Assembly (NCBI RefSeq): GCF_026914185.1
Contig: NC_070573.1
Location: forward strand, 2,349,501-2,413,500
Direction of reading: 5' to 3'
Source of the DNA: Puccinia triticina
Lineage: Eukaryota > Basidiomycota > Pucciniomycetes > Pucciniales > Pucciniaceae
Length of the DNA stretch: 64,000 nt
Made by a program: the position numbers and the translations under genes. Each line of letters starts with the position of its first letter. Position 1 is the stretch's first letter. The notes below the pieces were generated by a model. That model saw only the letters and a list, made by a program, of their open reading frames with translations, searched no databases and was not told where the DNA came from. Positions 2,448-48,235 of this stretch are shown here, piece after piece.

Positions 2448-2477
2448 CTAGAGTCCAAGGTGGCTTCGCCGCTGCAG
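2448..2477 (-). other. Helitron H1 3' terminus (hairpin plus CTAG)
   Basis: The sequence CTAGAGTCCAAGGTGG on the + strand is the reverse complement of the Helitron end. The stem has one mismatch compared with Ha. The other four termini are at 19129, 24039, 30270 and 35022. Confidence 0.8.
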
Positions 2478-3686
2478 GGCCCAAAACCCTGTGTCAACTT
2501 CCTAAGGGCCCACCCACCATTTCTCCCTTGGCATAGTCATTCCCTTCCAGGCGCCCCCAAATTTGGCTTAAGATTATCTCATACACATTCATAAATTTTG
2601 ATTGGAGGACTTCTGGTTGGCTAAAATTCTTAATCTGGAGGGAATAGCTTATAAATCTGACTGGCTTTTTGAAACTTATCAAGATCAAGTTTTCACCAGC
2701 AGACAAGTTATATCGTCTTTCTCTCATGATATTCATTAGGAAATGGTAAGTCTGACAAGGATGAGTTCAGTAAATAAATATTCAAAATTGTGAATAGATT
2801 TCCAAAAAGAAAAGAGCCTCCCCCTCCACAACATCTTGCTTTATATTGTGAATAATCCACAAACAATAATTTATCATAAACAAGGTGAGACCAACTTGTC
2901 ACATATTTACATATATAATTCACTTGATGTTACAGTGGGAAATCTCAGAAGGTCCTTCATTAAGCAACTACAATTTCTGACTCAGGGTGGTCCTTCAGCA
3001 TCACATCAACTCAAAAACGTACTTCAATCAAAAATTTCAGGGATCCTCCATGAAGAGCCATACAAATCAACATTTAATTTGGTATTTAGAATGTTACATA
3101 CATCCTGTGAAGAAATAATTCCAAGTCAGTCCAGTTGAAGTCTAAGTCAGTCCGGTTGATTTTGAGCTCCAGAAATCATTAATTCACCTAGGTACCAAGC
3201 TTGATGCCAACTCCCTGTAATAAAATCCCCAGTCAATAGTCTTTTCTCATTTGTACCTGAATTACTTACTTCCACAGTAATTTTTTTGCTATCTGCAATG
3301 TCACTAGTGAAAACATTTCCTATTGCACAAATCTTTCTTTCAAAACAATCAAAAGCCCTCTAATTATGTGAGCCCTCTGGCCTAACAGAGACCAAGCACC
3401 CAACCCTTACACAAGCTGCAGGGAAAATGAAGGTTGTGGGATACTTTGGCCAGAAATCAATCTGGTAAGTTAGAATAAATCCATAAAACAAAAGAACAAA
3501 AATTTGAAACGGTCCAACGTACTTGGCAAAGACAATACATTCAAATTACTATTCTGTTTGATGCCATGTTGGAAAAGTCAACGAGATTAGCGGTGTATGC
3601 AATATTTATGGCCACAATGACACAATTATTACAGGGGCCAACTGAATTTTGTGTTAATACATACAAAGAACAATTGTGGGGGTGGT

Positions 3687-4760
3687 CTACTTCCTGCGAG
3701 ACTTTCGGACTTCGAGAAAGTTGTCTAGGATAGAAGGGTTGAGTTTTTTGCGTTTGATCAAGGGGAGAGAAGAAGATTGACTGGAGACATGAGCGTGGGG
3801 AGTGGCTGACTGAATAGTGGATCGAGGATGAAGATTTGGGGGTTTAACGGTGGATAGGGGGGACGGGGCAGGAGGCAGAGAGGTGGGAAGCGTTTGGCAA
3901 AAGCCGAGGACTCCAAGCAGTTTCCATATTTCTTGGAATAAGCGCAATCGGATTGGTTGATTTGGAAAAAGAACGGCCCGCCGGCTGGGACTTTGTCATG
4001 CTTATGCTGGCTCAGCAGCTTATTCAATCGCTTGGGTGGCTCCAAGGTTCGTGAGAACAGCTTGAGCTCGTCTTCTGATCGCGCAGGCCGGAAGGGGGAC
4101 TGCGTGTGATGGGCCGCCTGCGGTCTGTTCAAGATGAGCGGCGTTGTGTCTGTACACAATGTGCCGGTGAGTTCTGATGGACCAGTGCGTGCAGCACCTG
4201 ATGATTAGTAGAACAAGAGATAGTCACGCCAACCGCAAAATCCGCCAAACTCACCTATGGATAACAGGTTTGATACCGACTCAGGTGTTTCGCGGAGCGG
4301 TCAGTCACACAATGCAAGCCCCTCAAAATAATTGACCTGAGATCTCTAAACGGCTCGTTGGAGGGAAGTTTGCTGGGCCGGTCTGAGGACTCTTGCAGAG
4401 TGGTTGAGAGCAAGCGAGCAAGATGGGCAATGCCGAGGTCAGTGACAGAGGTATGGTTGAGGACAATGGATATGACTGAATTGCCAAAGAGATTGTGCAT
4501 TTCCAGGGCGCACTGGTGCTCGGGTCCAGTGCAAGAAGAAGGAATGAGGGCGGTGCACGCGTTGAGGTAGAGGCAACAGTTGCGGGGAAATTGTGAGGGA
4601 TATTCTGAATGGCGAGGCGGCTGAGGCTTGCAAAAACCTGTACGGAGGGTAGTGTTTCAGTTGCGGTGCAATTGTGAGGGATATTCTTAATGGCGAGGCG
4701 GCTGAGGCTTGCAAAAACCTGTACGGCAGTGTTTATCACCGTCTACGGCTCAGACAACAG
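3687..4760 (-). pseudogene. Captured leucine-rich-repeat protein fragment
   Basis: Several minus-strand frames carry LRR-like text. VFASLSRLAIKNIPHN is repeated once 79-80 bp further on, LNHTSVTDLGIAHLARLL is followed by DLRSIILRGLHCVTD, and a C-terminal part ends SRRK at 3687. The spacing of about 26 residues fits the LRR unit of fungal F-box/LRR or adenylate-cyclase-type proteins, but I see no F-box, so the exact family is open. Frames shift near 4160 and 4260, either introns or decay. It lies wholly inside Helitron H1 and has no visible promoter of its own, so I read it as a captured fragment. Confidence 0.55.
4575..4732. repeat. Tandem duplication of about 79 bp in the LRR fragment
   Basis: Two nearly identical units both contain AATTGTGAGGGATATTCT and GGCTGAGGCTTGCAAAAACC. 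The period is close to one LRR unit (26 codons), so the duplication adds a repeat to the protein. Confidence 0.75.
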
Positions 4761-4799
4761 TCAATATGGTGCTTGCCATAGTGAAGCCAAAAATTTTCA

Positions 4800-5162
4800 A
4801 GGTACATACATGAGGTGGGCCGAGTACTTAAAGAGGTGGATGCTGGAGCTGTTTCCCCCCAGGGGATCCAGTGGTGTCCTACCCCCTCCCTGGAGGCCCC
4901 CTAAATCGTTTGATTAGGCCCCTCCTTGATTTGAAATTTGACCAACACTTTTTTGCGTGTTGCTGCGGCACAGGCTGGAGGGTCATTCAAAGGTGCTTCT
5001 CATGAAGTGTTTGTGGAATATTTTCAACGGTTTTTTGGGTTTTGTGAGATCATTGACTTACATTGTGGTCTGGGGAGGTGTTTTGGAGGGTTTTTTGCTA
5101 AAGAACACACGCCAAAACTTAGATCTGAGGCACCAGGATTGTGTGAATTCAATAAACTTGGA
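4800..5162 (-). repeat. 5' segment shared by Helitrons H1 and H2
   Basis: It matches 22080-22400: both contain CCCCCAGGGGATCC, CCTACCCCCTCCCTGG and CCCAAAACTTAGATCTG. It is the Helitron-specific 5' region upstream of the captured genes. No coding potential was recognised. Confidence 0.75.
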
Positions 5163-9456: not shown

Positions 9457-9459
9457 GAA

Positions 9460-11223: not shown

Positions 11224-11274
11224 TCGTTTACCAATTGTGAACTGGCAAAGGTCACCATTGATAAGGGAAATTTT

Positions 11275-15631: not shown

Positions 15632-15643
15632 TCTCATCACTAG

Positions 15644-17152: not shown

Positions 17153-18150
17153 TCCAAGTATATTAAAGCCTCAGGTTTACAGAAAAAAAAATCAAGGGTT
17201 CCCCCTTACAAAATGCAAAAATACAAAAAAAAAAAATCAAGGGTCCCCCCTTTACAAAACAAGCAATCAGAGGGCCAAAACCATCCTACAATTCCAGCAA
17301 AATACAAAAAAAAAACATCCTACATAAAAAATGACAAAAAAATCCACTCCCAGCCACCCAGCACAGCAAGCTGACACACCGTGGCCCAACACCCATCCCT
17401 GTCTAGCAGGGTTAAAAAGCGTTGGGAAGAGGACCCCCAGCCCAAAAGCACAGGGGGGCCCCCAAATATCCCCCGCCGGACTGCGCAAATGCAACAGCGG
17501 ACAAGGGTGGGACAACCCTCAAGCTGGAATTACAGCCCAAGAGTCGCCTGAGGAATCAATCTGGCCTCCAACCCCCCCCCTACTTATACCCGTCACAACC
17601 CGCCGCCCAACGACTCCAGGCCACGCCCACTGTGAGACCCCCCTTGAGGCCTCACAAGCAGGGATTACATAATCCACTCGTCAGACTCTTAGACTCGGAA
17701 TCCCCGCGCCCTCCTAGCTCAGCAGAGAGAAGCTAACCTCTCTCCTGGGCTAGGTGAGCATTTTTCCTTCTTCCTTATCTTCAGTTGTATTAGAGAGAGA
17801 AGCTAACCTCTCTCCTGGGCTAGCTCTTGCAATATAAGTGGTTCCTAGAAAAGTCTCTCCTTGGCTTCGAGCCAACGTGCCAACCCTGATAAGCGCCCAG
17901 TGAAGAGTCCCAGAGCGGACTCTTACACCCACTTGCTCGCCTGAAGCCACCTACACCACCTCAAACCAACGCCACGCAACGCCAACCCTATGCAACTACC
18001 GCGGTATTTCCCCGCTGGGCACCTGAAACGTACGTCAACACTCATACATCCTTCCCCTAGGCAATACACGCAACCCACCTCAACCCTTACCGCCACACCC
18101 CTGATGTGTATTTTACCTGTGTGGTACTGACTACAACTCAACAAACTTCA
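17153..18150 (+). repeat. 5' carrier segment shared by Ha, Hb and Hc
   Basis: Homologous to 30545-31060 (Hb) and, inverted, to 48235-47750 (Hc). Shared blocks include ATCAAGGGTTCCCCC, CCCTGTCTAGCAGGG, the GC-rich GGGGGGCC stretch and CTGACTACAACTCAACA. Near the 5' end a stem CCCAAC (17385-17390) / GTTGGG (17421-17426) encloses an inner stem CCCTG-TCTAG-CAGGG. The tandem block TAGAGAGAGAAGCTAACCTC occurs twice (about 17725 and 17790). Confidence 0.75.
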
Positions 18151-19128
18151 CCTTTGAACAACTTGGCCCATGCGACCGCAGGCAGGCACGATAAGTTTGA
18201 TCTTTGCTTTTCGTAACTCGCACTTCCAATCCTCCGATTACAACTTGGGGAACGTTCAAAAGTATTGCTTTGTATTTAGCGGCAATGGATTTTGCAGCCA
18301 CCACTTTGGTCGACTTATCAACGGACTCAATTGATCCTGGGATCTCTGATAAACCACAACCATCGATGCATGAAATCAATATGTAAGCATTTTGCTTTGT
18401 CTAGTCATTGCCACCCTTCAACACAGAGGGCTAACCTTTAAAAGCTTCGCTATTGTCACTATCAGACGCTTCGTTTCCAGTCTGTCGTGCTGCTTCACAA
18501 TTATCCTGACTAACGTGTTTGTCTGTCACAAATAATGATAACTATATTAACACCTTGCCAACAAATTAGGCTGGTCTGTTATGAGAGCAACTAACCGTTC
18601 AAAACAGCTCCAAAACTTTGCATGCTCCTATCCTGAAGGGCCTCGATCTCACAATTACTCCCGGAACCTCGCTTGCTATTGCCAGCCATTCTGAAAGTGG
18701 CAAAAGTACGCTTGCTTCCTGATTTTTTCTCTATTTTCTCTTCAAACAAAGACAAGGGATTGAACAATTTTTCTTTTGATGATCAACAAAGCCTCCTGTG
18801 GTTCTTTGATTCACAATTGGGCGGGATACTGTATGGCGACAAGCCAATTGGGAGCTTCAGGTCTTGCAAGATCCGGCGTTACCGAGCAGGACGGTAGGCA
18901 CAAACTTCAGCTACGGTGCCCTGGGAATCGTGTTGGAGAGGACGATGGTCGAGGCGGTGCAAAGGCCATGATGGACTGGACCCTTGACCCGAGTCCCGCT
19001 ATCTATAGTGAAGATTTAGGCTCCGGGCAAGAAAATATCACCGCGCAAGACTCCTCCAATGTGCCCATCATCCTTTGTTATCCTGCCGATAGCTTGGCTA
19101 CTCTGAAACAGGTGTATTTGTTATAGGA
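18150..19128 (+). pseudogene. Captured ABC transporter NBD, Walker A part
   Basis: In one frame 18646-18720 reads DLTITPGTSLAIA followed by SHSESGKSTLAS. This is the beta strand plus Walker A P-loop of an ABC ATPase (consensus GxSGSGKST, with the first Gly replaced by Ser). A stop follows at once, and further fragments such as GDKPIGSFRS (18830-18870) resemble the next NBD segment. The gene is interrupted by H2 at 19128 and resumes at 22401 with the signature region. Frameshifts make it non-functional. The family is probably an ABCB/MDL-type exporter, by analogy with the membrane half in Hb. Confidence 0.6.
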
Positions 19129-19158
19129 CTAGAGGCCAAGGCGGCTTCGCCGCTGCAG

Positions 19159-31060: not shown

Positions 31061-31165
31061 GTGCGGCGCGGCCATCCCACTCATTCAAAACTCACACCCT
31101 TCTGACCAGCAGCCAACCCCAAAAACCATCAGTAACAGCAACGACAGCAACACCCAAAAAAAGCC

Positions 31166-34372: not shown

Positions 34373-34990
34373 CCTTCTCTCTCCCACTGCTTCCTCCCTT
34401 CTCCACTCGGTCCTCCGCTGTCATCGTTCATTACAAAAACTGCGCCTGGGATTTGTGATCCCGGTGGTGAATAAACTGGTCAACACATGTTCAATCATCA
34501 TTAAATTTGTTTTTTACTGCCGTCTAACTGAAAATGATCTATTGTCCTCAACAATTAATTAATTTAGAATTTTGTTATACCAATCCTCAAACACTTGCGT
34601 TCACTGATTTGTTGAAAATCAATAAAAAAATCAACCCGCCTTTCGTAGAATGAATGGATCAAGTGGACAATTGAGCTATGTCCCCCATCCTTTGCAAAAT
34701 CAATTCATTGATCCGTAGGTGGTGCTTGCATTGTGACCTGATTGAGATGAAGATGAGTGTGGGCTGTGCTCAATGTTTGTACAACTTTGAGTTTGAAGAA
34801 GCAAGTGGTGATAAGGAAAGGCTTGACATAATTTTTAATGACAGCAAACCATATAACTTTTTACATAAATACACAAACAACATGGGGAAAACTTCTTCAT
34901 TGATTGTGGAGATTGCAGAATTGATTCTGGGTTTCCCAGTGGTTTTGGCAATTATATACTGTTGCAGCAACACAACTATTTTTCTTGAGA
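34373..34990. other. Hb 3' part, no gene
   Basis: AT-rich sequence after the Pumilio fragment, up to the Helitron hairpin. Nothing recognisable. Confidence 0.5.
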
Positions 34991-35022
34991 CCCTGCAGCG
35001 GCGCAGCCGCCTTGGCCTCTAG

Positions 35023-35184
35023 TAAAATCATAAAATCATAACACTTTTGAGTGATCATTTTTTATGTACCATTTTAGAATTGTTGCTCTTTTTTGAGTGA
35101 TTGGGTGTTACACATTTTTTTCAGATTAAAATTTTATGAATTTATGGTGTTATAATTTTATACAGTCAACTTTGAACACCCCTA
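35023..35184. mobile_element. MITE 2, right part
   Basis: Continues MITE 2 after Helitron Hb, with about 80% identity by eye to the right three quarters of MITE 1, and ends AACTTTGAACACCCCTA. Confidence 0.85.
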
Positions 35185-36506
35185 GTTGTAAATTGTACAA
35201 CACACTCAACCACTTGAATAAGTTTATGTATAAAACAAGATCAAGAACCCCACAGATCTCATAATTGGATCAGCTTGAGCCTACATAGATTGTGTGACCC
35301 ACAGAGGATGATATGATATTCTGATTTTGCAGATTACAGGAAGCAGACCCATCTGAATGATACTGCATCCATTGCCCAACCTTTTAAGGGGGGGGGGGGG
35401 GGGAACATTGGCTAAAATGTGCATTTCTTTAATTGTTATTTAGATCAATACACAAGGTTCACCATAGACGGGACAGCACTGATCAGCATTGGGAATTTGT
35501 TTCCAACAACAGCAAAGGCAAATAGAATCAATGGGTACTTGGGCAGGTTGGGAAAATGCTGGGGAGGGCACAGGGATGCTTAGTAAGTTTGGTGTGGCGG
35601 CCAGGAACCTATGCAGCGGCCCCAACAATGAGTACCCTTCCTCTTCCCAATGCTGAAACAAATACAAGACATGGAGTGTCTCTGGTAAATGTTTATTCTT
35701 GAAGATGGAGACCTACATGTCCTATTTTTTGTTTTCAGTCATCATATACACAATAATAGCTAAAAACAAAAAAAATGGGACTTGTAGGTCTGCATCTTCA
35801 ATGAAAAACGTTTACCAAATACACTCCATGTGTCCTCTCCATGTGTTGTATTTGTTGAGTCCTCCCCCCCCCCCCCTTGGTTGATGTTTGGAGGTGCCAG
35901 GGAGGGGAGAAGGAAGCCCATGAAAGCCAGTATCAGGGTCTCTGTGGTAGGTTATGATATTTTTACTTGTGGGGGCTTTGAAACAGGGAACTGACACTGA
36001 GTCGTAAAACCCCCGCCTTGAGGACAAGCAGATACCTTGATTGAGCTGGGGAAATTTTCAATTGCAGGTCTCCTGTATGTGTTCAGGTTGGATACTTGGG
36101 GTTTGGCAGAAGCTAGATCTTGTCCTGGTTATCAGTAGTATCAGTGAGAGTATAACGGACCATTTGCCAATGGAAGTGTTGGGACAAGGCATGCTTTGAG
36201 TCTGACTATAAGAGCTACATTTGGGGCTAGCCTATACAAGCATTGATGTTGTTATACCAGTCGCGGTGTTGGTACGACTTACTGACATTTTGGTGCAGGT
36301 TTGTGATCCAAGAAATCACGCTCAACTTGAAAGGTTCAGGTTGAGAAAATTTGCCTATCAAGATACTGAAATATTTCAAGAAACTAAGAAGATATTTCTA
36401 GTTACATCTATAACATTCCCTCACTTTGATGGAAAGAACAATATGGGGGAAAGACGCACGCCGACGACGCCGGTCTTCTTCTTCCTGAGCACCTGTGGCA
36501 CTATAA
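35185..36506. other. Hc interior without recognised gene
   Basis: Contains a poly-G run (about 35391-35403) and a poly-C run (about 35866-35877). The near-repeat AAATGTTTATTCTTGAAGATG / ACGTTTACCAAATACACTCC around 35685-35830 suggests a small inverted or duplicated stretch. A plus-strand frame (36221-36610) has no recognisable domain. Confidence 0.4.
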
Positions 36507-36639
36507 TTCTTCGGATTTTAGCCGAAGAAAATGTGCATTTTTCTTTGGCTAAAAGCCGAAGGAGCGCTGGAGCTGGCCGGGCTGGCAGAGCTGAGTTCAT
36601 AGGAACCTAGCCACAAAACCTGGGCAGCGCACCCAATGG

Positions 36640-36712
36640 TTGTTAGCCTAGTGGTTTGCAGCGCAGCTGCAAACCTCCTTACAGCAAGGTTGCCGGTTCA
36701 ATTCCGACTGCC
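36640..36712 (+). ncRNA. tRNA-like (pol III promoter-like) segment
   Basis: TTAGCCTAGTGG fits the A-box (TRGCNNAGTGG) and GGTTCAATTCC, about 50 bp later, fits the B-box with one mismatch. Between them GGTTTGCAGC-GCA-GCTGCAAACC is a perfect 10-bp stem, unlike a normal anticodon arm, and the acceptor stem does not pair. It is likely the head of a SINE or a tRNA-derived repeat, not a working tRNA. Confidence 0.5.
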
Positions 36713-36719
36713 CCCATGC

Positions 36720-36816
36720 CCCATTTGGGGGTTAGGGGGCAGGTTAGGGGGCGGGTTTTTGGGGGTCGGGTTTTAGGGGGTCGGGTTTTAGGGGTTAGGG
36801 GTTAGGGGTTAGGGCA
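36720..36816 (+). repeat. Telomere-like G-rich tract
   Basis: Variants of TTAGGGG and TTTTAGGGGG follow each other (for example GGGGTTAGGGGTTAGGG). Fungal telomeres are commonly TTAGGG, so this is an interstitial, degenerate telomere-like tract. A second short block is at 36988-37008. Confidence 0.65.
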
Positions 36817-37185
36817 GTTTTTTTTAAAAAAAACGTGGCAAGGTGTATAGTACATTGTATTGGTATGTATCGGATACGTATCGGTATGTACCGGATACGT
36901 ATCGGTATGTATCGGATACGTATCAATATGTATTTTTAGTACACTGTACAGGTATGTATTGGATATGTATTGGATACGTATCGGTATTTAGGGGTTAGGG
37001 GTTAGGGCAGTTTTTTTTAAAAAAAACGTGGCAAGGTGTATAGTACATTGTATTGGTATGTATCGGATACGTATCGGTATGTACCGGATACGTATCGGTA
37101 TGTATCGGATACGTATCAATATGTATTTTTAGTACACTGTACAGGTATGTATTGGATATGTATCGGATACGTATCGCTATGTATT
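36798..37185 (+). repeat. Two tandem units of 193 bp
   Basis: The landmark AGGGCAGTTTTTTTTAAAA occurs at 36811 and 37004. Each unit continues with GTGGCAAGGTGTATAGTACA and a run of GGTATGTATCGGATACGTAT sub-repeats (about 20 bp, near palindromic around GTATCGGATAC). Confidence 0.88.
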
Positions 37186-37378
37186 TGTATCGGATACAGT
37201 AATGTATCCAATACATACCAATACCAGCTCATCCAGCGCCAGCCAGCGCGCCAGCTCCAGCGCTAGCCAGCGCCAGCCAGCGCGCCAGCTCCAGTGGAGC
37301 TGGCCCGGCCAGCTCTGCTGTCCTTCGGCTTTTAGCCAAAGAAAAATACATTATTTCCTTCGGCTACTAGCCGAAGAA

Positions 37379-38411
37379 AAAAAGGGACAAAACTCTTCCT
37401 GAGAGCCCAAGAACTTGGAGACGGGCGAGAGGTGATCGTGGCGTTTGCGGATAGCGTCGAGACGGGCATTGAAGGCGAGGATGATCTTGACGACTTCCCT
37501 AGCCTTGGGGGTCCTGGGCCCGGCGGCGGCGGCGTTGAGCCGGCTGAGGCGCCAGACGAGCAGCCGCATGTAGTAGCCGCGGGCGCCCGAGTTCCAGTGC
37601 AGGAAGAGGTGCTGGAAGACGAGCGGGTCGAGCGGCAGGTCGAGACATAGCGCTTTCAGCGTCTCCGGCTGCGTCGTCAACCTATCCCAAGAAACCCCCT
37701 CGTCAGTTACAAGAAAGAGAGAGAGAAGGGGAAGACGCACGCCTCGAACTGGGAGTAAATGAAGGCGATGGTGCGCATGACGCAGACGGTGTTGTCGGCG
37801 GTGAGGAGGATCCTGCGAGGACGTCAAGGATGAAGGGGAGGTTGAAGAGGGCGAGGGAGGGTCGGCCAAGGACGGGGGGGCTGGGGAGGTCGTTGAGGAG
37901 GAGCGGGGGGGCGGGGGCGGTGTAGAGGACGGTGTAGAAGAGGCCGTCGAGGAAGTCGAGGAGGAGGAAGACGGAGCGGGTGTTCCACATGGAGGTGCGT
38001 TTGGTGATGGCGCGGATCCAGAGGCTGAGCAGGCCGCTTAAGAACTGGCGCCGGCGCGCGCTGTCGTCCAGTTCTCCCTCCTCCTCCTCCTGCTGCTCCT
38101 GGGGGGAGGAGGGAGGCCTGGGCGAGCCGCCGACGATGTTGAGGGCGGTGGAGACCAGCCGACGGTGGGCGAACTCGAGCACCTTGGGCTTGGCGCCCAT
38201 CGCCAGGTTGGCCGACTCGCCCGCATTGAAGCTGCTCGTCGTCGGGCCCAGCGTGGTGACCGAGCGCAGGCTGCGGTGCACCAGCGAGTCGCACTTGTCC
38301 AGGAAGGACGCCGAGACCAGCAGGAAGCCCGGCATCGAGATCAGCGTCGACGGGTGCACCACCGGCCGCGCATGGGGACGCAGGTAGGTCGCCAGCTGGC
38401 GATGGTAGGCC
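37379..38411 (-). pseudogene. Captured DUF1765-like gene, C-terminal portion
   Basis: From the KDZ boundary downward the minus strand reads YHRQLATYL, HPSTLISMPGFLLVSAS, SLWIRAITKRTSMWNTRSVF and LLDFLDGLFYTVLY. Then come DNTVCVMRTIAFIYSQFE, a short intron (about 37690-37742), and RLTTQPETLKALCLDL followed by HLFLHWNSGARGYYMRLLVW. The blocks (D)NTxxxMRxxxFIYSxxE and FxHWxxxxRxYYMRLLxWR are what I know from the fungal DUF1765 family, whose function is unknown. The N-terminal continuation is at 47538-47710, beyond the KDZ transposon. The 3' end is lost at the 872-bp TIR element. The GC content is much higher than the surroundings. Confidence 0.6.
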
Positions 38412-38694
38412 CCACCTGTGGCCACTACATACTAGTATAGTATACCGAGGCATGTAGGGGTGGTTTAATACATGCTAGAGGGTGATTTTCAGTGTGTTAA
38501 TACAGCAACTCCAAAATCCCCAGAACTCCCGCAAACTCCAAAAATCGGGCCACTCATTTTTTTTACAAGTCGGCAGCCGACCATCCCGTCATATGACCCC
38601 CCTACTCCAGCGAGCCCACAGCACATCACACCCACCTCCGCCCGGCACTTTGTCCGGCAGAACACACTACACGGATCACCCGGACTGCCAACCA
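38412..38694 (+). repeat. KDZ left TIR
   Basis: About 283 bp, inverted relative to 47249-47537. Shared blocks include AACTCCAAAATCCCCAGA, CGGGCCACTCATTTTTTT, GCCCACAGCACATCAC and CACTTTGTCCGGCAGA. Confidence 0.92.
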
Positions 38695-39107
38695 CCACGG
38701 TGGCACACATCACCGGTTGATATATACATGTATGAAAACCCCCACATGCACTACTGCCTGTCAATGCAACACAAACACTCTAACCCACCTTCCAAACCCT
38801 CCTTTGCAACAAATACAAGTCTTCAATCTTAAGTTCCAATTTTTGTTTTGCTTGGTCTTTAATCGCGCATAATATTTATGATGAAATTACAAGACACTTC
38901 ATTCACTATTCTGTCTCAGAGAACAAAGTGAAAACTATGGGGAATTGAAATAATTAGTGTGGCAAAAGCACAAATAAATTGAAAGTAAAAAAAGGATGAA
39001 TGAAATTTTTGTCAAGAAGACGCATGTATATTGAAATGTTTTAACCAGGCAAAGAAAGTCAAGGGAGTCAAAATGAGTTGTTGGCCGGCAATAGTGATAT
39101 CAACCTC

Positions 39108-42100
39108 CTAATCATCATCAGTGCCGTCATCCTCCGCGTCGGTATTAAGAAACATATCTTCTTCAGCATCCTCCCCATCGTCCGCTCCCACTTCGAGTAT
39201 TGCCTCCTCCAACTCAACATCTACTTCAGGCAGGTTTGATGAGCTTGCATATTCTGGTAAGCCCATTTTAGTCCGCATGTTGTCCCAATTGCGGAGCATT
39301 GATGTGCGGTATTCACTTGGCTGACAATGATTTGCAAGCCATGGGACATGTGAATGCCACTCTTCAACCAAGGCTGCGTGAAGAGTCTGTCGACAACGTA
39401 GCTCTTTACAAATTACTCGGAGTCGATCTCTTCGATCCAAGCCGTGAAGAACTAAGCTGTCAAAACGATCCACATCTACATTTTCCGGTTGGTTTCCGAG
39501 CAGAGTGATACCTATAAAAAGAATGTAAAAGATCAGATAATGTATCCAACAGCAAATGTACATTCTAACACACGTTTACCCATTTCTGTTATTACATCCT
39601 CCACATGAGTATAGTAACTGATTGCCCAACCTACTGCCCTCGCTAACTCTTGAGAAATGAGTTCAAACTCTTCTTGGACTCTGTCCAAGATAAGAACACA
39701 GTTTATACCCGCTCGCACATTTGGCTCGATTGCCCAAGGGGCCTTTGACTGAAAATACAACCCGTCATTCCAGAATTGGTGATCAAGGGGCCAGCTGGAG
39801 AAAGTGTTGTAATCAAGAGGATAGTGGGATGAGTCGGTTGATTGCTGATTCGGAAATTTCTGCAAGTATTCAGCAAACAGTTTGTTATACTTGTCGAGTA
39901 ATCGTTTGACTGCTGGGCGGCGATTCCCCATTGCTTTGAGGATTTTTTCTTTGAGCTCAGTCCCCACACGAGTCCCAAGTTTTTTCGCATCCAATAAGGG
40001 TTGGCGTTCTGCTCGGAGTTGGACAGCTTGGGTGTATAATTCATTTTTCGAATTCCATAACAGCAGGAGCAGCCGTTGCTCATCGCTTGTCAGAAAAAAC
40101 AGAAATCAATTTCAAGCTGCTTCCTGCAATCAAATGAAACGTACTATTTTCCTCCCCGGAAGGCAAATCAATACCCAATGCCTCAGCTTCCGCAGCATCT
40201 TTGTTGAGTTTCTTGGACACCTTTTCGATCTTATCAGAAATCTTCTTGACCTCCGCATCCGATAAAAGATCAAGGTCCGGATCCGTCAGGCGCTCTCTGC
40301 ATTGATTTTGCTCAGCAGTAACTCTAGAATTGGGAGTTTAAGGAAATACTTGCCTTAGGAGTTCAAGATTTGCTCGATGTTCATAAATCTTGACCAGCTT
40401 TTCCCTTCGCTCCTGCTCTTCATCTGTGTGATCTGCTCGAAACGTTCGCTGGTGGTTCCATTGCTTCCTGAAATATGATACTGTATACTTGCGGCCTGCC
40501 TTGAAAGGATTGTCGAGCAATAAGATCTTTTCTAGCTCTTTACGGATCTCCCTGCGTCGAATTGATGCTAATTTGAACTTCCTGGACAGCCAATAGACTG
40601 AAAAATGTCTGGTCAGAGGGTCACTAATCCCAAATAAAAGAGAGAAACTCACGGAGTTTTTTCATCCCTCTTTTGTTGTGGTATTTTAATCGATGCCCGA
40701 GTGCGGAAAATCGGTGATTGCGACTTGCGTATCTCAGAGAACTGACCAGCGTTGACAGATAGGACCACATTTGCTCCAACCCTTCACCGTCAGATAGCCC
40801 CCACCCCTTGTTCAAGCGAGGATTATAATCCAACTGGCACGTCCAATTGTGGACATACGAGTGCAATATTGAAGTTCCAAACGTTGCGCCCTTGATCAAA
40901 TCCGGTAGAAGACCACGCTATTTGGTAGATGAGAGATGTAGTGCATCATTTTTAGTTCAAGTTTGAAATGAATCAGAATTGGAAGGGAGCGAGCGAATCA
41001 AGCTCACCAACTTGATATATTTATCAAGGGAGCATCCAATATCGTATAAAATTTCTACCGGTCGATCCGGATCCACACCAAGCAACTTCTTCAGCAATGC
41101 TAAAGGGAGGGCTCTTAGCTCGCCAGACTTATAGATATTTGCCAAGGAGATTGCTGCATCATGTCGACAGCAACATCCCATGAGCCCGGTGTCGTCGCAC
41201 CCCTTCCAAGTGGATTCATTCCTCTTATCGTCGGCAGCCTTATGAGCATCTGCACATCGATCCGCCTAGTAATACCATGGCCAGTGCAAGTCAGAGAAGT
41301 TCATATGCCAAGCAAACACGTCATCACAAACACACACACCTGAGCTGGCGGCTTATTAACAAGCTCCATATGCCGGATTTCTTCGGTCATTTTTTTGACT
41401 GAACCTTTGGATAGGAAAATGTTGGGCATGTAAAGAGTCTCAGAATCGCGGCTTGCCTTCGCGTGGTGTCGGTGTTGAAAATTTCCATCCAAGCATACGA
41501 CAAGACGATTCCGTGTGGACGCGGGGTAATCAGCGTCGTTAGATGGCTTCGGACCAAAGCAAGCTGGGCATGATTGATTTGCCAATTTGTCGTGCTCAGT
41601 CAGGTTAAGCGCCTCGTCCATCAAGTCGTCTGTCCTCCTTTCTAGTGAACGGAATAGATCAACTGCGGCTGAGAAGGGCTTTCGCATATCTCGGGCCTAC
41701 CAAAGGGTTTTTCTATGATTTAGTTTCCCATCTTTTTTTATCAGTGTAATCATCACTTACGTGTTTTTTGCCCTTGACACATAGTCGCTCCGAGCGCGGC
41801 TCGAGGAACTCAGTGAGTGCAACTGTGAAAGGCAACATCCCAATGTTGCAGTTGTTCCAAAGCGAGTTGTGGAAGATCAGCAGAGGGAGCGAGAACGCCG
41901 TTTGAGGTTTCAGCGGGGAGCCGGCCAGATAACCGAGCCGCAATAGACGGACTGCGTCATATGTACATTTACAAAATTCAACCGGCCTCCGCCTTTGTGC
42001 TGATAAAAGTGAAGGGAGGTGTCAAGATGGTCATCATAACTGGGCATGATCTTGCTGATTAGGAAAAAACAAAGGCACATACCGTATATGTCCACCATGT

Positions 42101-42602
42101 CAATGGGGCGAGTCGTCTTCTGCTGAGCTGTGCATTTACATGCGTCTGACTTGTATTCTTCATATGCGTTCGTGCCCGACCAGTTCTTCGTGTGCAACTT
42201 GAGCGTAAGGTACCAGGTGTGAAGTTGTTTCATCAAGCATGACCAGTTGAGTTCTCTAGCTCGTCGACGATATTCCTCTTGAATGGAATGGATGGAGGGG
42301 TCAATGCCTTCTTCTTGTTCTTCTTCTTCGGCGAAAGTTAACCATCTCGAAGTAGTGTCTTCTTCCTCATCTTCGGACTCGGAATCTTCATGCTGCCGCT
42401 GAGACTCGTTGTTTGGATCGTAAGGAATCTGCATTGTTTCTGAGTTTTCAATCTTGTCTGGTTCTTCTGAAGCAATTATTTCTCTCCTGCGTAGTCGAGA
42501 CCATGCGCTTGCGTTCAGGGCGGCATTCTGCGAGCGTCTGAGTCGTTGGGAGCGAGCTTCGCGTGGATTTTTTATCTTTGTGCGCCTGGCCATTTCTCTC
42601 AC
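39108..42602 (-). CDS. KDZ transposase with CxC cysteine cluster, multi-exon
   Basis: N-terminus MARRTKIKNPREARSQRLRR, a Glu/Asp-rich stretch, then the cysteine-containing segment CKC twice (about 42140 and 41966), the second followed by DAVRLLRLGYLAGSP. The KDZ core contains CPACFG, LVVCLDGNFQHRHH (first Asp), a CCRHD segment, VEILYDIGCSLDKY (second Asp), FGTSILHSYVHNW, and LNKGWGLSDGEGLEQMWSYL (acidic Glu motif). The C-terminus is acidic and ends DDD-stop at 39108. KDZ (Kyakuja-Dileera-Zisupton) enzymes are RNase H-fold transposases. At least seven exons are implied. I did not fix every splice site, but the first donor GTATGTG is at 42082. No inactivating stop is obvious in the core exons. 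Confidence 0.88.
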
Positions 42603-43099
42603 CGGTTTGGAAGCTGAGTACCTGAAGCTGGCTGGATAAGTAAGTTGCGAGAGGTGTCAAGAATATTGGTGACCAAGGCGGAAAAATCGAGATAAACGAT
42701 ACTGATGAAGCCCGGGGAAATTGCAGACAAGCGATGTTGATCAAGCCGAGGGCTGTGCCAGTTAGTTGAGACCGATGAAGCCAGCGGCAGAGAAGCCGAG
42801 AAAGCAAAAAGACGGCAAAGTAATCTGATAGACACGGCGAGGAGGATCCGGATGGGCGAGGGAGCTGAGGGCGATGAAGGTAAGAGAGGATAATTGTCAA
42901 AACCCAGCCCAAGTTAAACGCGCAATAATCCCATCCTTGTACACTATGATCAGCTACATACATAAACCAAATATCAACAATGGTACTCTCCTGGATCTTC
43001 TGAACTGAATACATTGCACCAGTTATGTATCCTGGAATTCTCAAAGATAATTGCTCAATTTTGTTTGCTTGCCAGAGCTATACCAAGCAGAAATGGATA

Positions 43100-43776
43100 A
43101 TTTCTAATCAAATTTTCACTGTGGGGAAAGGAGCAATCTGAATGACTTGTACATCAGTCCCAACAGCTTTGAAGTTAAAAGCAACTGGGTATCATGACTA
43201 ATTCTATTCAAAATTTTGAATTTTATTCCTTAGGCTACATAGGACGGCAGAGATTTGCTTAGATTGAGCAAGAGGTTTTGCCAAAAACCCTTGTTATTAG
43301 GGAAAGGGTGTACTTGGATATTGTGATCCCTTTTGTGTTTGATTTCCAACTGAACTGACAATTGGATGGATTAGTCTTTGATAAATTAATTTAATGTGCA
43401 TGAACAAAGAAATCATGTGTTGACTGGAGCAAGAAAAGATTAATAATAATTGACATACACTGCTATTTTGACTGGAAAATATACACTTTAAATTCTTGAA
43501 TCGGACAGGACACATTTTATGGTGTTTAACAGTTTTTTCTGATGTGGTAGCATTGGCGGACTGTTATTGCTGCTATACTAACAGTACACTGTGTTGCATC
43601 ACATTTAGTAGGAATATAATAATTATTTTATAGATGGCACTTCACAAAAACCATTATTAGATTGATTTGGACAAATGCAGGCAGGACAGGGATTTATCTG
43701 TTAGGATGGTTTATGTCTGAGGTTTTAGCAACTTTGCTGATACTCCTCCAGATTGGCTGAAATTTCAAAAAAACTC
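43100..43776. other. KDZ element spacer upstream of the transposase
   Basis: AT-rich, no recognised gene. The transposase promoter should be in this interval or nearer to 42602. Confidence 0.4.
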
Positions 43777-44195
43777 ACTGGAGGACCTATTAACTGTGTC
43801 AGAGACACTGTTAACTGTGCCAGAGGCAAGGCACTATTAACTGTGTCAGAGACACTGTTTACTGTGCCGGAGGCACTATTAAGGGGTTTCAAAGTAGAAC
43901 CGCACATGCAACTTGCAAGGCAAGGCAAACCGGTGTTCAACTCAAATGTTGAACGCCGACTTGCAGTCTCCCCGCAAAACCGGGTTATGCAAAGTGACCT
44001 GCATGCATGCGCGGGTCTACTTTGAAACCCCCTATTAACTGTGTCAGAGACACTGTTTACTGTGCCGGAGCCACTATTAACTGTGTCAGAGACACTGTTT
44101 ACTGTGCCGGAGCCACTATTAACTGTGTCAGAGACACTGTTTATTGTGCCAGAGGCACTATTAACTGTGTCAGAGACACTGTTAATCACTGTGAA
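43777..44195 (+). repeat. 42-bp tandem repeat array
   Basis: The unit CTATTAACTGTGTCAGAGAC + ACTGTTTACTGTGCCGGAG recurs with period 42 (44041, 44083, 44125 and so on), about six to seven copies. It is interrupted by a 149-bp MITE at 43883-44031. Confidence 0.9.
43883..44031. mobile_element. 149-bp MITE in the tandem array
   Basis: Inverted ends GGGGTTTCAAAGTAGA / TCTACTTTGAAACCCC. CTATTAA occurs directly on both sides (43876-43882 and 44032-44038), a 7-bp or slightly imperfect 8-bp target duplication, as expected for a hAT-type MITE. Confidence 0.8.
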
Positions 44196-44203
44196 AAAAG
44201 TCA

Positions 44204-44280
44204 AGAGACTGCTGCCAGTTGAGATGCAATATTACAAAAGCGCCTTTATAATATTGCATGTCAACTGGCAGCAGTTTCTT
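44204..44280. other. 30-bp stem hairpin
   Basis: The left arm (44204-44234, GACTGCTGCCAGTTGAGATG...) pairs with the right arm (44249-44280, CATGTCAACTGGCAGCAGT...) with few mismatches and a 14-nt loop. It could be a tiny MITE remnant or a small-RNA precursor-like fold. Confidence 0.6.
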
Positions 44281-44775
44281 GAAATTTCTTGATTTTTTTC
44301 CACAGCAAATAGTGCCTTTAAAAGTGCCTCTGCAATAGTCTTTTTTTACAGCAATATGCCCCGCAAAACTGTGGACTTGTCAAGATCATCACTGCTGTCA
44401 AGCAGATCCCTTCTTTCCACACTGCCCAGACTGAGCCCATACCAGATCTGCTCAATCTACAATTTAGAATTTGTTTTTTTTTGGGAGAAGTGGTCAACAT
44501 TATGTCTGAGGAAAAAAATGTATAGTTGGGTTGTTCTATCTCTATCTAATATTCTTTATAGAAGTATAAAAATTATTGAATTGGAGGAAAAAGACCATTA
44601 TGTTTTGCTAGTCAGTTGTGTATATATAGTGATATTTAGAATGCAAGCCTTGGACAGAGGAAGGAATATTAGAAAAAAATTGACTACAAAAGAACAACCC
44701 TTGCACTAAGGAAGGTTAAAAATGCCTTACACAGTGCAAAGACTATCTAAGAATAAAAAGACAGGTTACAACTAC

Positions 44776-46932
44776 TTATTCCATATTATCACTGTCCTCC
44801 TCCTCAAAACCTTTTTCCGCTTGTTCTACCTCATCTTCATCCTCCTCCTCACTGCTTTCGCCAGATTTCTCCAAGTCAGAAGTGGTGGAAGAACCAAGCT
44901 TGCGTTTTTTCTTTGGGGCCGCTTTTTGTTTCCTCTTTGACTTCAGCGGTTTCAGGACCACATCACATTTACCTACAGAAACTATGGTTGGTGAAGTGTC
45001 ACCCTCAAGAGTTTGACCATCAACGTGGAATCCTAGAGCGTTATTTTTGGGAGCGGGTGGGCCAATGAGCTGGACCCAATCTTCCTCTAATGCTTCAACA
45101 ACAAGTTGGGCATGTTTATCTCCCATGTCCCCTGGTCGCTTACAGAAGTGCTGGGGGGTAACACCGCAATCATTGTCCTTCACCTGCAAACTGACTTTGA
45201 GTTTCGAAAGTCGCCATTGAGTGCGAGTACCAGGCCATCCTTTGATCCATTGACCATGCGTTGCCTTTTCTGGATAGAAGCAGAGTGGATTTGATAAAAA
45301 TTTTCTTACATACATACACGGTTTCAAAAGAAGAAGCTTACCGATCGCAGAATTGAGTTTGGCTCGGATGAAATCAATGTTGGCTTCTTTTTCTCCTTTG
45401 TCGTGTTTTGTGAACAATTGATGGGGCTTGTTCTGTGTGCGGGGTCTCTTCTTTGTTACAACTGGTGTAGATTCTTTGCCGGTGATCTTCTTGATGACAT
45501 GTTGACCTCTAAGAAAATCAACAAAGTTGAAAACCGGATCGTCCTCAGTTGAGTACATATCCAGAAAAAATTCGCCTAGATGACTGCCCCCGCTGAACTT
45601 TAGAGTGGCATCTTTGCCTCGCGATCCAACAACCAGAAAGCCTTCAGTACCAAACCTTCGGCTGAGCTGTTTCAACTTTCTTAATGAGAAAAGGGACAAT
45701 CAGATGCAACACACCAAACAAACAGAATTAAATCAAGGCATCACTTACGTCAGCAACGACCTTGCGAGCCCAGCGATCCGAATCAAAGGTTGCTGATTTG
45801 TGCTTTTTAAGTAAAGATGTGGAGGCGTTTTCGTTGTTGGTTGCAATATCGATGCCATCAGTTGGATCGTCTTGTCCCAAAAAGGATTCTAAGAAGTCAG
45901 GATCCTTCCACTTCTTCTGAGTCGCAGGATCTACTAGCTTCCAAAGTCTACTGCATTCACGCTTACGATCATCGGGATGCATGTTTGCTGCAATTAAAAA
46001 AATATTACCGGTGAATTTCCGAACTCAATAATTCAAGGAAGATACCAAGAAAGCGCACAATCATTAAAAGCCTTCCTAGCAACTGGATCGTACTTGCAGA
46101 AAGTGTTATAGGTGGTCGAGCCTCTGGGATTTGCCCCCTCGCCAACATATCGTAAACACGGTCCGATTTCAAGCTTGTTCTTGTACGCTATCAAGTAAAG
46201 CTTCCGCTGATACTCCTTGTACGCAGAGTTAAGCTCAAGCTTGTCTTCACTTGTAAGACGAGCATATTGAGCATTTTGAGCAACAAGTTTCATGAGCTGG
46301 TCGAGTTCCATATGATCGGCTTTCTCAACTAGGCTGGCTGCAGTCTTAGCACGTGGAGGGGGCTTTAGTTTGGCGATTTCAGGGTTGGATTCGTGGCTGG
46401 TGGTACACGAGTGTACTGAGTTTGAGTGGGCTGCCAAGTTTGTGGGGTTTGCAGCGCTAGTGGTGGCTGGAGGACGATGTGCAGATAAATCAGGTTGTCC
46501 AGTATGGTACATAGGCTGGCCGTCCTGAGGTAACGGAGCTGGTCCTGGCGGCTTAAAGTGGGCTGGCACTGTCAGACCATTCGTTGGATCCAACGGTATT
46601 TCAAAGGTACCTCGGGGGTTCACCTGACTGAGGGGCCTTCCATACTGCAGGTTTGGGTTGGGGTTCGATGGCTGGTATGGGTCTGGATAGTAGTGAGACA
46701 GATCATTTGACTGATTAACAACAGTTTCGAATGGATCGGAAGCGCTATATTCACGGTGCAAGAGTTCAAATGGTTCAAATCTGTCATCTAGACAAAGCAA
46801 GGACGGGCACTGAGACATGTATCCAAATAAGTCCATTTGGGATGGCGGAGGCAAGTGGAAGATGTGTGAGTGCGGCTTGAGTTCTTGGAGGTGTGATTGA
46901 TCGTTTGGCTTGAAGATAATCTGTGTGTTCAA
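44776..46932 (-). CDS. KDZ-associated accessory protein, HMG-like
   Basis: The three exons suggested are 46932-46055, about 45974-45750, and 45680-44776, with stop ...SDNME at 44776. Exon 1 is Pro/Ser-rich, then LVEKADHMELDQLMKLVAQN and YKEYQRKLYLIAYKN. The segment across exons 1-2 (TTYNTFCKYDPVARKAF, then MHPDDRKRECSRLWKLVDPA then TQKKWKD) has the layout of an HMG-box-like helical domain. Exon 3 contains LSRRFGTEGFLVVGSRGKDA and HLGEFFLDMYSTEDD, and ends in basic (KSRKRQKAAPKKKR-like) and acidic tails. I do not recognise a named family. Its position in the same orientation within the TIRs suggests a DNA-binding partner of the transposase. Confidence 0.6.
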
Positions 46933-47248
46933 TCTGGATGGAAGCGGAAAAGAAATTTATTTTCATTCAGTCAAAATTTGCCTTATTTGGGGTGCTGGTG
47001 GGATCATAAAACATGAAGCAATATTCTACCGGTGTTGCTTGTGAGTCAGCAATATGTGGTGTAAGGTTGTTTGATCTGAAGAAAAGCAGAAAATTGTGTG
47101 GGTTTAAATCAACTACAGTTCCTTTTTGGTTAAATTATTGGGAGGATATGACTTACGCTAATGTTGGACTTGGCACGGTTCTGATTTATGAGAGTTGAAT
47201 TAGAACGGTGGATAGACTGTAGACTGGGCACTGTAAATATTACAATCG

Positions 47249-47537
47249 GTTGGAAATCCGGGTGATCCGATGGGGTGTGGTCTGCCGGACAAAGTGCCGA
47301 GTGGAGGTGTGATGACGGGGGTGATGTGCTGTGGGCTGGCTGCAGTAGGGGGATCATATGACCGGTAGGCCGGCCGCCGACTTGTAAAAAAATGAGTGGC
47401 CCGACTTTTGGAGTTTGCGGGAGGTCTGGGGATTTTGGAGTTGCTGGAATCGCACACTAAAAAACACCCTCTAGCATGTATTAAACCGCCCCTACATACC
47501 TCGGTACAGTATGTTAGTATGTAGTGGCCACAGGTGG
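47249..47537 (-). repeat. KDZ right TIR
   Basis: About 289 bp, the inverted partner of 38412-38694. Confidence 0.92.
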
Positions 47538-47710
47538 TAGGCCCGGTAGAACGCAAACGGGAGGTTGGATTCCGACGCCTTGAATCAACCTATCCCAAAA
47601 CACTCAATCAGTCATGCGCGGGGGGCAGGGAGAACGGGAGACGGACCAATTGCCGCTCATCTCAACCTGGATGTCGCCCTCCTGGACGAGCAGATTGTCT
47701 GAGTCGGAGT
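47538..47710 (-). pseudogene. Captured DUF1765-like gene, N-terminal side of the KDZ insertion
   Basis: The minus strand reads DNLLVQEGDIQVEMSGNWS, then a probable intron ending GATTCAAG, then ASESNLPFAFYRA. This joins in frame to YHRQLATYL at 38411. The fragment starts at the Helitron carrier near 47710, so the gene's N-terminal region was never captured or has been lost. Confidence 0.6.
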
Positions 47711-47739
47711 GTATACTGTTCTTGTTGACAACGCCTCGC

Positions 47740-48235
47740 CGGTCCAGGCACCGCCGCGGAGGTCAGCGTTACATGCAGGGGCGTGGCGGTGGCGTGGTAT
47801 TCATGGCTTGATGAATGTGGCGTCAATTTTGCTGAGGGCAATTCCCGATTGTCTATAAAAGAGGACTCCGGGTTGTGTCTTTGTGTCCCCCAGGGCGTCC
47901 TCTGCCGCTGTAATTCCAGCGTGCGGTTCGCCCTCACCCCTCCGCTGTTGCACTTGCGCAGTTTGAGGGGCTAAACTCGTTGGCCCCCCTTTGCATAATG
48001 CCTTCAATGCGGCGCGCTGGGGGCCATCCACCCACTATTTTAACCCCTGCTAGACAGGGATGGATAGTGGGTCTAGTTTGTGGTGTTTAGATTTTTTGTT
48101 AAGAACACTTTTTTTGTGATTTGCTTTTTTTTGGAAGGGGGAACCCTTGCATTTTTTTTTTTTGTAATTTTGTTGATTTGTAGGGGGAACCCTTGATCTT
48201 TCTTTCCGTGTTTCTCTGTCTTTAATAAACTTGGA
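47740..48235 (-). repeat. Helitron 5' carrier segment (Hc copy)
   Basis: Inverted homologue of 30545-31060. It contains stem CCCACTAT (48031-48038) / ATAGTGGG (48064-48071). Confidence 0.78.

What the first reader, a model, noticed from the sequence alone, without database searches (positions are those of the whole stretch)
2448..48235. A family of five gene-capturing Helitrons in one nest
Five elements (2448-5162, 17153-24039, 19129-22400, 30270-48235, 30545-35022) share TCC at the 5' end and a GC hairpin followed by ...CTAG at the 3' end. Each sits between host A and host T without target duplication, which is the full Helitron signature. Each carries different host gene pieces: LRR, ABC ATPase, chitin synthase, ABC membrane part plus RRM-Pumilio, and DUF1765-like. 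In three cases the host sequence rejoins exactly (R1 LTR, MITE, R1 pol). A tight family of cargo-swapping Helitrons in a rust-like genome appears little described.
Basis: partly seen in the sequence, partly recalled or inferred. Interest (0 to 1): 0.95.

Follow-up and report, generated by a model that had tools for sequence, protein, structure and literature searches.

The report
Gene-carrying Helitron family in rust fungus
Five jumping-DNA elements of the Helitron kind sit in this stretch of a rust fungus genome; they belong to a family with hundreds of copies, and three of the five carry recognisable pieces of ordinary fungal genes, as Helitrons do in maize.

Summary
The core observation is real. 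All five elements have TCC and CTAG ends between host A and host T. Genome-wide, the 17-base 3' end occurs 880 times (reversed control 0), followed by T in 871 of 880. The 16-base 5' end occurs 522 times (control 0), preceded by A in 34 of 34 distinct ends held. In 435 of 435 pairwise comparisons of 5' copies, homology begins at or within 35 bases before the TCC. This is canonical Helitron1; one Rep/helicase-carrying copy with near-identical ends was found.

Host gene pieces are recognised in E3 (chitin synthase), E4 (DUF1765) and E5 (ABC membrane part plus RRM-Pumilio), each with a donor-like locus elsewhere; only E4's was read, on one side. E2 is partly supported (same locus as E5's ABC part). 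E1 is not (no LRR found). E4 is a roughly 3.4 kb Helitron with three nested insertions, not 18 kb. Two of three claimed exact rejoinings were reproduced. Interiors begin at several points 345-565 bp from a shared 5' end. It is a large new member of a known kind, notable because fungal Helitrons are described as capturing little.

The parts
2448..5162 (-). Helitron E1 (5' end at 5162, 3' end at 2448). Cargo not identified. Carries a tandem duplication of 81-bp period at 4577-4726.
   Evidence: Ends; seven other loci with 94-96% identity, two of them interrupted; no Pfam match in three ORFs scanned and no PDB or protein match supporting an LRR for the one ORF tried
17153..24039 (+). Helitron E2 (5' end at 17153, 3' end at 24039), interrupted by E3; own length 3,615 bp. 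Its right half matches the same genomic locus as the ABC part of E5.
   Evidence: Ends; C5:1568096-1568741 matches 51-706 of the right half at 78%; Pfam found nothing in the four E2 ORFs scanned; in PDB one ORF matched pentatricopeptide-repeat designs (E 8.5e-08) better than ABC proteins (E 0.58 and 1.3)
19129..22400 (-). Helitron E3 nested in E2 (5' end at 22400, 3' end at 19129); cargo is part of a chitin synthase gene, in sense
   Evidence: PF03142 E 1e-77 and 3.7e-22 on the - strand; donor-like C7:6301091-6302993 matches query 443-2374 (window about 21608-19677) at 88%; relatives on C15, C2, C11 and C6 at 90-96%, their Helitron ends not checked
30270..48235 (-). Helitron E4 (5' end at 48235, 3' end at 30270) with three nested insertions; own length about 3.4 kb; segments 48235-47535, 38412-37394, 36489 downward
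   Evidence: Segment alignment to sister copy L047: element 1-702, 693-1711, 1702-1851 at 97-98%; unoccupied relative 1174-1672
37394..38412 (-). DUF1765 gene piece of E4, in sense
   Evidence: PF08578 E 7.1e-12; seven sister Helitrons 95-98%, the piece starting 676-692 bp from the 5' end; donor-like locus C12:1683210-1684235, 95%, whose homology stops at element position 527-531
30545..35022 (+). Helitron E5 nested near the 3' end of E4 (5' end at 30545, 3' end at 35022), 4,478 bp
   Evidence: Ends; six uninterrupted sister copies at 99-100%; L068 99.3% identical over the first 1,850 bp; rejoining in a short repeat also present at 1962-2167
31136..31630 (+). ABC transporter membrane-domain piece in E5
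   Evidence: PF00664 E 7.9e-08; C5:1570124-1570569 81% and C14:4061416-4061920 83%
31594..34427 (+). RRM-Pumilio gene piece in E5; about 34427 is taken as the junction with the Helitron 3' region
   Evidence: PF00076 E 1.4e-06; PDB 6ny5 Pumilio protein E 8.9e-27; donor-like C7:5571457-5574236, 88-91% over query 545-3366; query 3378-3551 recurs without the rest at other loci
38413..47536 (.). TIR DNA transposon of about 9.1 kb inside E4 (not part of the Helitron)
   Evidence: Inverted arms 38412-38693 and 47248-47537, 86%; 8-bp duplication GTAGGCCC read by eye from the flanks printed; paired arm hits at nearly the same spacing on C10, C1 and C13, and a longer pair on C9
36490..37393 (.). 0.9 kb repeat inserted in E4, with a 193-bp tandem duplication and TTAGGG-like repeats
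   Evidence: Segment gap against L047; TRF; its edge recurs at 22 listed loci (40 of 154 candidates scored)

Best explanation
The five elements are non-autonomous canonical Helitrons (Helitron1) of one large family in a rust fungus, probably Puccinia triticina. A Rep/helicase encoded by relatives with the same ends (such as the copy at C3:3674921-3685578 or its kin) is inferred to nick at the ends, copy one strand by rolling circle and insert it between A and T. During copying or repair, pieces of host genes were taken up between the conserved 5' region (about 345-565 bp) and the conserved 3' tail; the product then multiplied as a new subfamily. Shown: ends, target site, lack of target duplication at two sites, copy numbers, shared 5' ends with different interiors, gene domains in three elements, donor-like loci for them, and one capture junction read on its 5' side. 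Inferred: the transposition chemistry, that this Rep/helicase group moves the family, that the donor-like loci are donors, and that uptake was internal (template switching or repair with filler DNA) rather than by reading past the 3' end.
For: Ends and A|T sites 5 of 5. 880 exact 3' ends and 522 exact 5' ends, controls 0. T follows in 871 of 880. A precedes 34 of 34 and T follows 17 of 17 distinct ends in the DNA held. Pairwise homology starts at or just before the TCC in 435 of 435 pairs. Two unoccupied relatives without duplication. Pairing of ends 25 of 63 against 4 and 7 of 63. 30 five-prime loci (E4 and 29 others) fall into 10 interior classes. Rep/helicase copy with the 16-base 5' end and 24 of 28 bases at the 3' end, followed by T. 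Domains: PF03142, PF08578, PF00664, PF00076, Pumilio. Donor-like loci.
Against: E1 has no identified host gene and a broken hairpin. E2's ABC identity rests on a shared locus with E5; no domain was found, and one ORF matched designed pentatricopeptide repeats better than ABC proteins. Of 21 Rep matches on the listed part of C1-C3 (counted by eye) only 1 lies in an element with this family's exact 5' end, and its coding part is split into several ORFs, so an active partner is not shown. 38 of 63 five-prime ends have no exact 3' end within 10 kb. The C7 and C5 donor-like loci were judged from hit coordinates only; the queries did not contain the Helitron's outermost ends, so Helitron ends there are not excluded. 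At C12 only 901 bases on one side were read; a Helitron copy that lost its 5' part is not excluded, and the match next to the junction is 85.7-91.5%, lower than the 95% further in. Four further Pumilio copies at mostly 92-96% (C10, C13, C14, C15) are more like E5 than the C7 locus and are unexplained. On checking this report the confidence was lowered from 0.92 to 0.9 because of the donor caveat.
Confidence: 0.9

Rival explanations
1. Capture by end bypass: the enzyme read past a weak 3' end into a neighbouring gene and stopped at a new or neighbouring terminator, so the gene was added downstream rather than taken up internally.
For: End bypass is the mechanism confirmed for the bat Helitron as summarised in PMC5148889 (passages), and a read-through model is said to fit HELPO1 in PMC4289320 section 14. 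With 880 three-prime ends in 122.8 Mb, read-through to the next family end could leave conserved ends on both sides.
Against: Next to the junction the C12 locus shows no Helitron 5' homology in 644 bp and no TCCAAG in the Helitron's orientation. Interiors begin at several positions inside the 5' region (about 345, 385, 510-530, 560 bp). Remnant 3' ends inside elements were not searched for systematically.
Confidence: 0.3
2. The gene pieces are ordinary pseudogenes or segmental duplications that Helitrons merely landed beside, not cargo.
For: E1's content is unidentified; four Pumilio copies (C10, C13, C14, C15) show no listed hit to E5's 3' region beside them.
Against: The DUF1765 piece starts 676-692 bp from the 5' end in seven dispersed sister elements, and E5's interior recurs whole at six other places at 99-100%. 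Homology of 5' copies stops at the TCC.
Confidence: 0.04
3. The captured pieces are kept by selection as working mobile genes.
For: The pooled dN/dS of the first part of the DUF1765 piece in its own frame is 0.47.
Against: With mutation type and CpG context controlled there is no significant excess of synonymous changes: first part, own frame, 19 seen against 16.8 expected (P 0.30); second part, own frame, 23 against 32.1 (P 0.99), dN/dS 1.17. Two of nine loci carry a stop in the scored stretch, and five of seven aligned copies have gaps of 10-23 bases.
Confidence: 0.06

Closest known systems
Gene-capturing (non-autonomous) Helitrons of maize (details recalled; capture in maize is stated in a passage of PMC5148889)
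   Same: TC..CTRR ends, hairpin, A|T sites, many copies with interchangeable host gene pieces; E5 combines pieces of two genes
   Different: Fungal host; about 880 exact ends in 122.8 Mb; no genome-wide cargo census done here
HELPO1 and HELPO2 of Pleurotus ostreatus (PMC4289320; passages and section 14 read)
   Same: Basidiomycete Helitrons, subterminal hairpin and 3' CT(A/T)G, no target duplication; HELPO1 carries captured genes of unknown origin
   Different: [quoted passage not shown] ostreatus gene fragments'; here donor-like loci are in the same genome. Four to twenty copies per family and strain there (PMC4905642 table passage), hundreds here
Helitron-N1_AN of Aspergillus nidulans (mentioned in PMC4289320 section 14; original not seen)
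   Same: Non-autonomous fungal Helitron with a fragment of a host gene (a dioxygenase)
   Different: A single reported capture with a terminator said to be formed anew; here many elements share one conserved tail
TET/JBP-carrying Helitron1 families of Puccinia graminis (PMC12730594; passages only)
   Same: Helitron1 in the genus Puccinia with an acquired gene
   Different: One gene type there; varied gene pieces here. TET/JBP was not searched for here
FoHeli of Fusarium oxysporum (PMC5148889; passages only)
   Same: Fungal Helitron superfamily with non-autonomous derivatives
   Different: Non-canonical by its title; 27 putative capture events listed there, but capture not thought to play an important role

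Membership tests
Helitron1 (canonical Helitron; definition recalled) | 5' TC and 3' CTRR ends | tested here: met
   5 of 5; 880 and 522 genomic ends
Helitron1 (canonical Helitron; definition recalled) | GC-rich hairpin about 10-12 nt before the 3' end | tested here: met
   4 of 5 with an intact 5-bp stem, E1 broken; energies not better than shuffles
Helitron1 (canonical Helitron; definition recalled) | Insertion between A and T without target duplication | tested here: met
   T after 871 of 880; A before 34 of 34; two unoccupied relatives
Helitron1 (canonical Helitron; definition recalled) | No terminal inverted repeats | tested here: inconclusive
   No inverted pair of 60 nt or more joins the two ends of one element; shorter ones not tested
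Helitron1 (canonical Helitron; definition recalled) | Rep/helicase-carrying relative with the same ends | tested here: met
   C3:3674921-3685578: PF14214 match, Rep and helicase parts by tblastn with other Rep-Hel ORFs, ends; coding part split
Helitron1 (canonical Helitron; definition recalled) | Catalytic HUH and tyrosine residues in Rep | not tested
   Not examined
Helitron1 (canonical Helitron; definition recalled) | Rolling-circle single-strand transposition | not testable with these tools
   Needs detection of circular intermediates
Gene-capturing Helitron | Host gene piece inside the ends, for E3, E4 and E5 | tested here: met
Gene-capturing Helitron | Donor of that piece elsewhere in the genome, without Helitron ends | tested here: inconclusive
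   Donor-like loci for all three; only C12 (for E4) was read, 901 bases on one side, and lacks the Helitron 5' region
Gene-capturing Helitron | Host gene piece, for E1 | tested here: not met
   No Pfam match in three ORFs; no supporting PDB or protein match for one ORF
Gene-capturing Helitron | Host gene piece, for E2 | tested here: inconclusive
   Shares locus C5:1568096-1570569 with E5's ABC piece, 78%; no domain hit
Helitron2 / Helentron | T-T target (definition recalled) | tested here: not met
   The target is A|T

The most novel reading that the evidence does not exclude
This rust carries a maize-like, recently active Helitron exon-shuffling system: hundreds of short Helitrons that take host gene pieces, mostly in sense, into the space between a fixed 5' region and a fixed 3' tail, at several distinct points 345-565 bp from the 5' end, by an internal uptake route that differs from end bypass, and that can add pieces one after another (E5: ABC plus RRM-Pumilio).
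Probability: 0.4. Interest if true: 0.7.

Novelty: new member of a known kind. Interest (0 to 1): 0.5.

Why it matters
[quoted passage not shown] A family with hundreds of copies, recognised gene pieces in several members and donor-like loci in the same genome would contradict that as a rule for fungi and offers a compact system for asking how Helitrons pick up genes. It also bears on rust gene annotation: sense gene pieces in many mobile copies can be miscounted as gene families. The published Helitron share for P. triticina haplotype A, 2.6% or 3.2 Mb (PMC12210899 passage), is close to 880 ends times a mean of 3.9 kb (25 paired elements), about 3.4 Mb; this is a rough inference.

Tried and rejected
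Selection on the DUF1765 cargo: the pooled ratio of 0.47 in the first part looked like constraint but vanished with a mutation-type control; rejected. 'Cargo without donor': the DUF1765 family search gave 11 matches at nine loci, which first looked all Helitron-borne; a 901-base look next to the C12 locus found no Helitron 5' region there, so it is taken as donor-like. Rep partners: three Rep matches had a family 5' end upstream within 10 kb on the same strand (by eye); two proved to lie beyond a separate complete Helitron (L072, L074), one is in the same element (L073 with L075). Of the three Rep loci read first, L069 and L070 have different 3' ends and so belong to other Helitron families; no end was recognised in L071. 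Hairpin stability as evidence: rejected. LRR in E1: rejected for lack of support. Unoccupied sites for E1, E2 and E3: none found. Short shared letters at the E4 junction: none clear in the letters printed.
Full report
What the window is. The window is G000:C16:2349501-2413500 of a genome of 122,823,596 bases in 18 contigs. That size fits Puccinia triticina (haplotypes of 123.9 and 121.6 Mb in a passage of PMC12210899); the name is my inference and no tool gave it.

The ends. At the stated coordinates all five elements begin TCC and end CTAG in their own orientation, with host A before and host T after. E2, E4 and E5 have nearly the same 5' end (TCCAAGTwTATTAAAG), and E4 and E5 share 355 bp at 92%. 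E1 and E3 form a second, more diverged group (76-77% over two short stretches, one of which reaches to within 2 nt of both 5' ends). The 3' tail is GCAGCGGCrmAGCCGCCTTGGCCTCTAG in four elements, with two changes in E1. The 5-bp stem is intact in four of five, but folds no better than shuffled sequence.

Genome-wide test. The 17-base 3' tail occurs 450 + 430 times and the 16-base 5' end 275 + 247 times, with none in the reversed controls. T follows the 3' end in 871 of 880. In all DNA held, A precedes 34 of 34 distinct 5' ends and T follows 17 of 17 distinct 3' ends. Thirty 5' loci (E4 itself and 29 others; the best 30 of 40 scored, from 1,038 candidates, so biased towards E4-like copies) were compared in all 435 pairs: alignments start between 35 and 1 bases before the TCC, and 388 start within four bases. 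On C1 and the first 3.29 Mb of C2, 25 of 63 listed 5' ends have a same-strand 3' end within 10 kb, against 4 of 63 and 7 of 63 in two controls; sizes are 1.5-7.3 kb, median 3.3 kb and mean 3.9 kb. The other 38 have none within 10 kb.

Unoccupied sites. E5's flanks are contiguous in a short repeat: 1962-2003 matches 30499-30540 and 2009-2167 matches 35024-35181, and the five bases between correspond in number to the four left and one right unmatched bases at E5. Neither shows a target duplication. No such relative was found for E1, E2 or E3 in the window or the loci held then.

The true shape of E4. Against sister element L047, E4 consists of window 48235-47535 (element 1-702), 38412-37394 (693-1711) and 36489 downward (from 1702) at 97-98%. 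The first gap holds a 9.1 kb transposon with inverted ends of about 290 bp and an 8-bp duplication read by eye; paired end hits at nearly the same spacing lie on C10, C1 and C13, and a longer pair on C9. The second gap holds a 0.9 kb repeat. E5 is the third insertion. The Helitron itself is about 3.4 kb, like its sister at C2:2599944-2603376 (3,433 bp).

Cargo. E5 holds a piece of an ABC transporter membrane domain (PF00664), then an RRM and Pumilio piece (PF00076; PDB 6ny5, E 8.9e-27). Six uninterrupted sister copies are 99-100% identical over the query, one more is interrupted and one has a deletion. A locus on C7 (5571457-5574236) matches query 545-3366 at 88-91%, with no listed hit to the Helitron part of the query beside it; I read it as the donor or a close relative of it. 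Four further Pumilio copies on C10, C13, C14 and C15 start at query 1334, match mostly at 92-96% and remain unexplained. E3 holds part of a chitin synthase gene (PF03142, E 1e-77); C7:6301091-6302993 matches query 443-2374 only, at 88%. The queries did not contain the outermost Helitron ends, so ends at those C7 loci are not excluded. E4 holds a DUF1765 piece, which starts 676-692 bp from the 5' end in seven sister elements. The genome's 11 DUF1765 matches fall at nine loci: E4, those seven, and C12:1683210-1684235. The 901 bases next to the C12 locus match the Helitrons only up to element position 527-531 (85.7-91.5%) and then stop, with no further match in 644 bases and no TCCAAG in the Helitron's orientation. 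Helitrons with other interiors share the 5' region with this group up to about 510-538, or less (345-390). The junction is therefore placed to within about 20 bases. A Helitron copy that lost its 5' part is not excluded. E2's right half and E5's ABC piece hit the same locus, C5:1568096-1570569, on the same strand, so two elements seem to hold parts of one gene; E2 itself gave no domain hit in four ORFs, and one of its ORFs matched designed pentatricopeptide repeats (E 8.5e-08) better than ABC proteins (E 0.58, 1.3) in PDB. E1 gave nothing that supports an LRR, though seven other loci hold most of the element. Where a domain shows the sense, the gene piece runs with the Helitron: ABC, RRM-Pumilio, DUF1765, chitin synthase, and a Tho1-like piece in L067; a NAM-associated ORF in L057 runs against it.

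Breadth. The thirty 5' loci fall into 10 classes by what lies beyond the shared 5' region; one of the 10 is E4, whose interior at that point is the TIR transposon. A Pfam scan of 116 ORFs from 21 of the 29 non-window 5' loci, the eight 3' loci and three further loci matched eight families, among them DUF1765, ABC_membrane, RRM, Tho1/MOS11 and SAP; each matched one to three ORFs. Most ORFs matched nothing, so the share of elements with gene cargo is not settled.

Partner enzyme. The search for the Helitron Rep domain scored 150 matches of 200 candidates. Of 21 on the listed part of C1, C2 and C3, three had this family's 5' end upstream within 10 kb on the same strand (counted by eye). In one (C3:3674921-3685578, 10,658 bp) the element runs from that end through Rep and helicase to ACAGCGGCAAAGCCGCCGTAGCCTCTAG followed by T, 24 of 28 bases like the family's tail. 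Its coding part is split into several ORFs; whether by introns or decay was not tested. L069 and L070, two of three other Rep loci read, have other 3' ends, so the genome holds several Helitron families.

Mechanism. Rolling-circle transposition by a Rep/helicase in trans is inferred from the family. For capture, the C12 locus shows no Helitron beside the junction, and the points where interiors begin differ (about 345, 385, 510-530, 560 bp), while the tail is conserved. That favours uptake between existing ends (template switching or filler repair) over reading past the 3' end, but only one junction was read, on one side.

Cargo fate. With mutation types controlled, DUF1765 copies show no significant excess of synonymous change in either part (P 0.30 and 0.99 in their own frames). 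This one cargo looks neutral; others were not tested.

Literature. Seven searches (listings only; 9, 47 and 64 list only part of the papers found) showed no title or abstract start describing host gene capture by a rust Helitron family; passages of PMC12730594 report five TET/JBP-carrying Helitron1 families of P. graminis. PMC4289320 (passages and section 14) holds that fungal Helitrons capture less, and mentions one host-gene capture in A. nidulans; PMC5148889 (passages) lists 27 putative captures but no important role. PMC12210899 gives 2.6% Helitron for P. triticina haplotype A (passage). The gapless P. triticina paper PMC9927501 has no occurrence of 'Helitron' in its main text.

Verdict. 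It is a large new member of a known kind, notable for fungi.

Noticed in passing
4577-4726, 23195-23445, 32989-33134: The window copies of E1, E2 and E5 each carry a tandem duplication (81, 132 and 73 bp) that the other well-covered copies listed lack, judged from overlapping hit coordinates. Could be biology or an assembly effect.
   Followed up: partly
38413-47536: A 9.1 kb TIR transposon with about 290-bp inverted ends and an 8-bp duplication; end hits at nearly the same spacing, 99-100% at one arm, on C10, C1 and C13. Superfamily not determined.
   Followed up: partly
36744-37180: TTAGGG-like and GTATCGGATAC repeats in and beside a 193-bp tandem duplication inside a 0.9 kb high-copy repeat.
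   Followed up: no
49515-50280 and 58950-60140: Two arrays of a degenerate unit of about 43 bp rich in GGTCATCGAG-like words.
   Followed up: no
G000:C1:5748588-5754066 and 5754078-5756831: Two family Helitrons head to tail, 11 bases apart.
   Followed up: no
G000:C1:5691478/5695303 and 5724359/5728184: Two pairs of 3' ends with the same spacing of 3,825 bases, suggesting a local segmental duplication.
   Followed up: no
L069 position 7809 and L070 position 7275 (oriented): 3' ends of two other Helitron families, with 9-bp hairpins and TCTAG or CCTAG followed by T.
   Followed up: partly
7291-8019 and 14903-15631: Direct repeats of 729 bp, 96% alike, around gag-pol-like ORFs: an LTR retrotransposon; family read by eye.
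   Followed up: no
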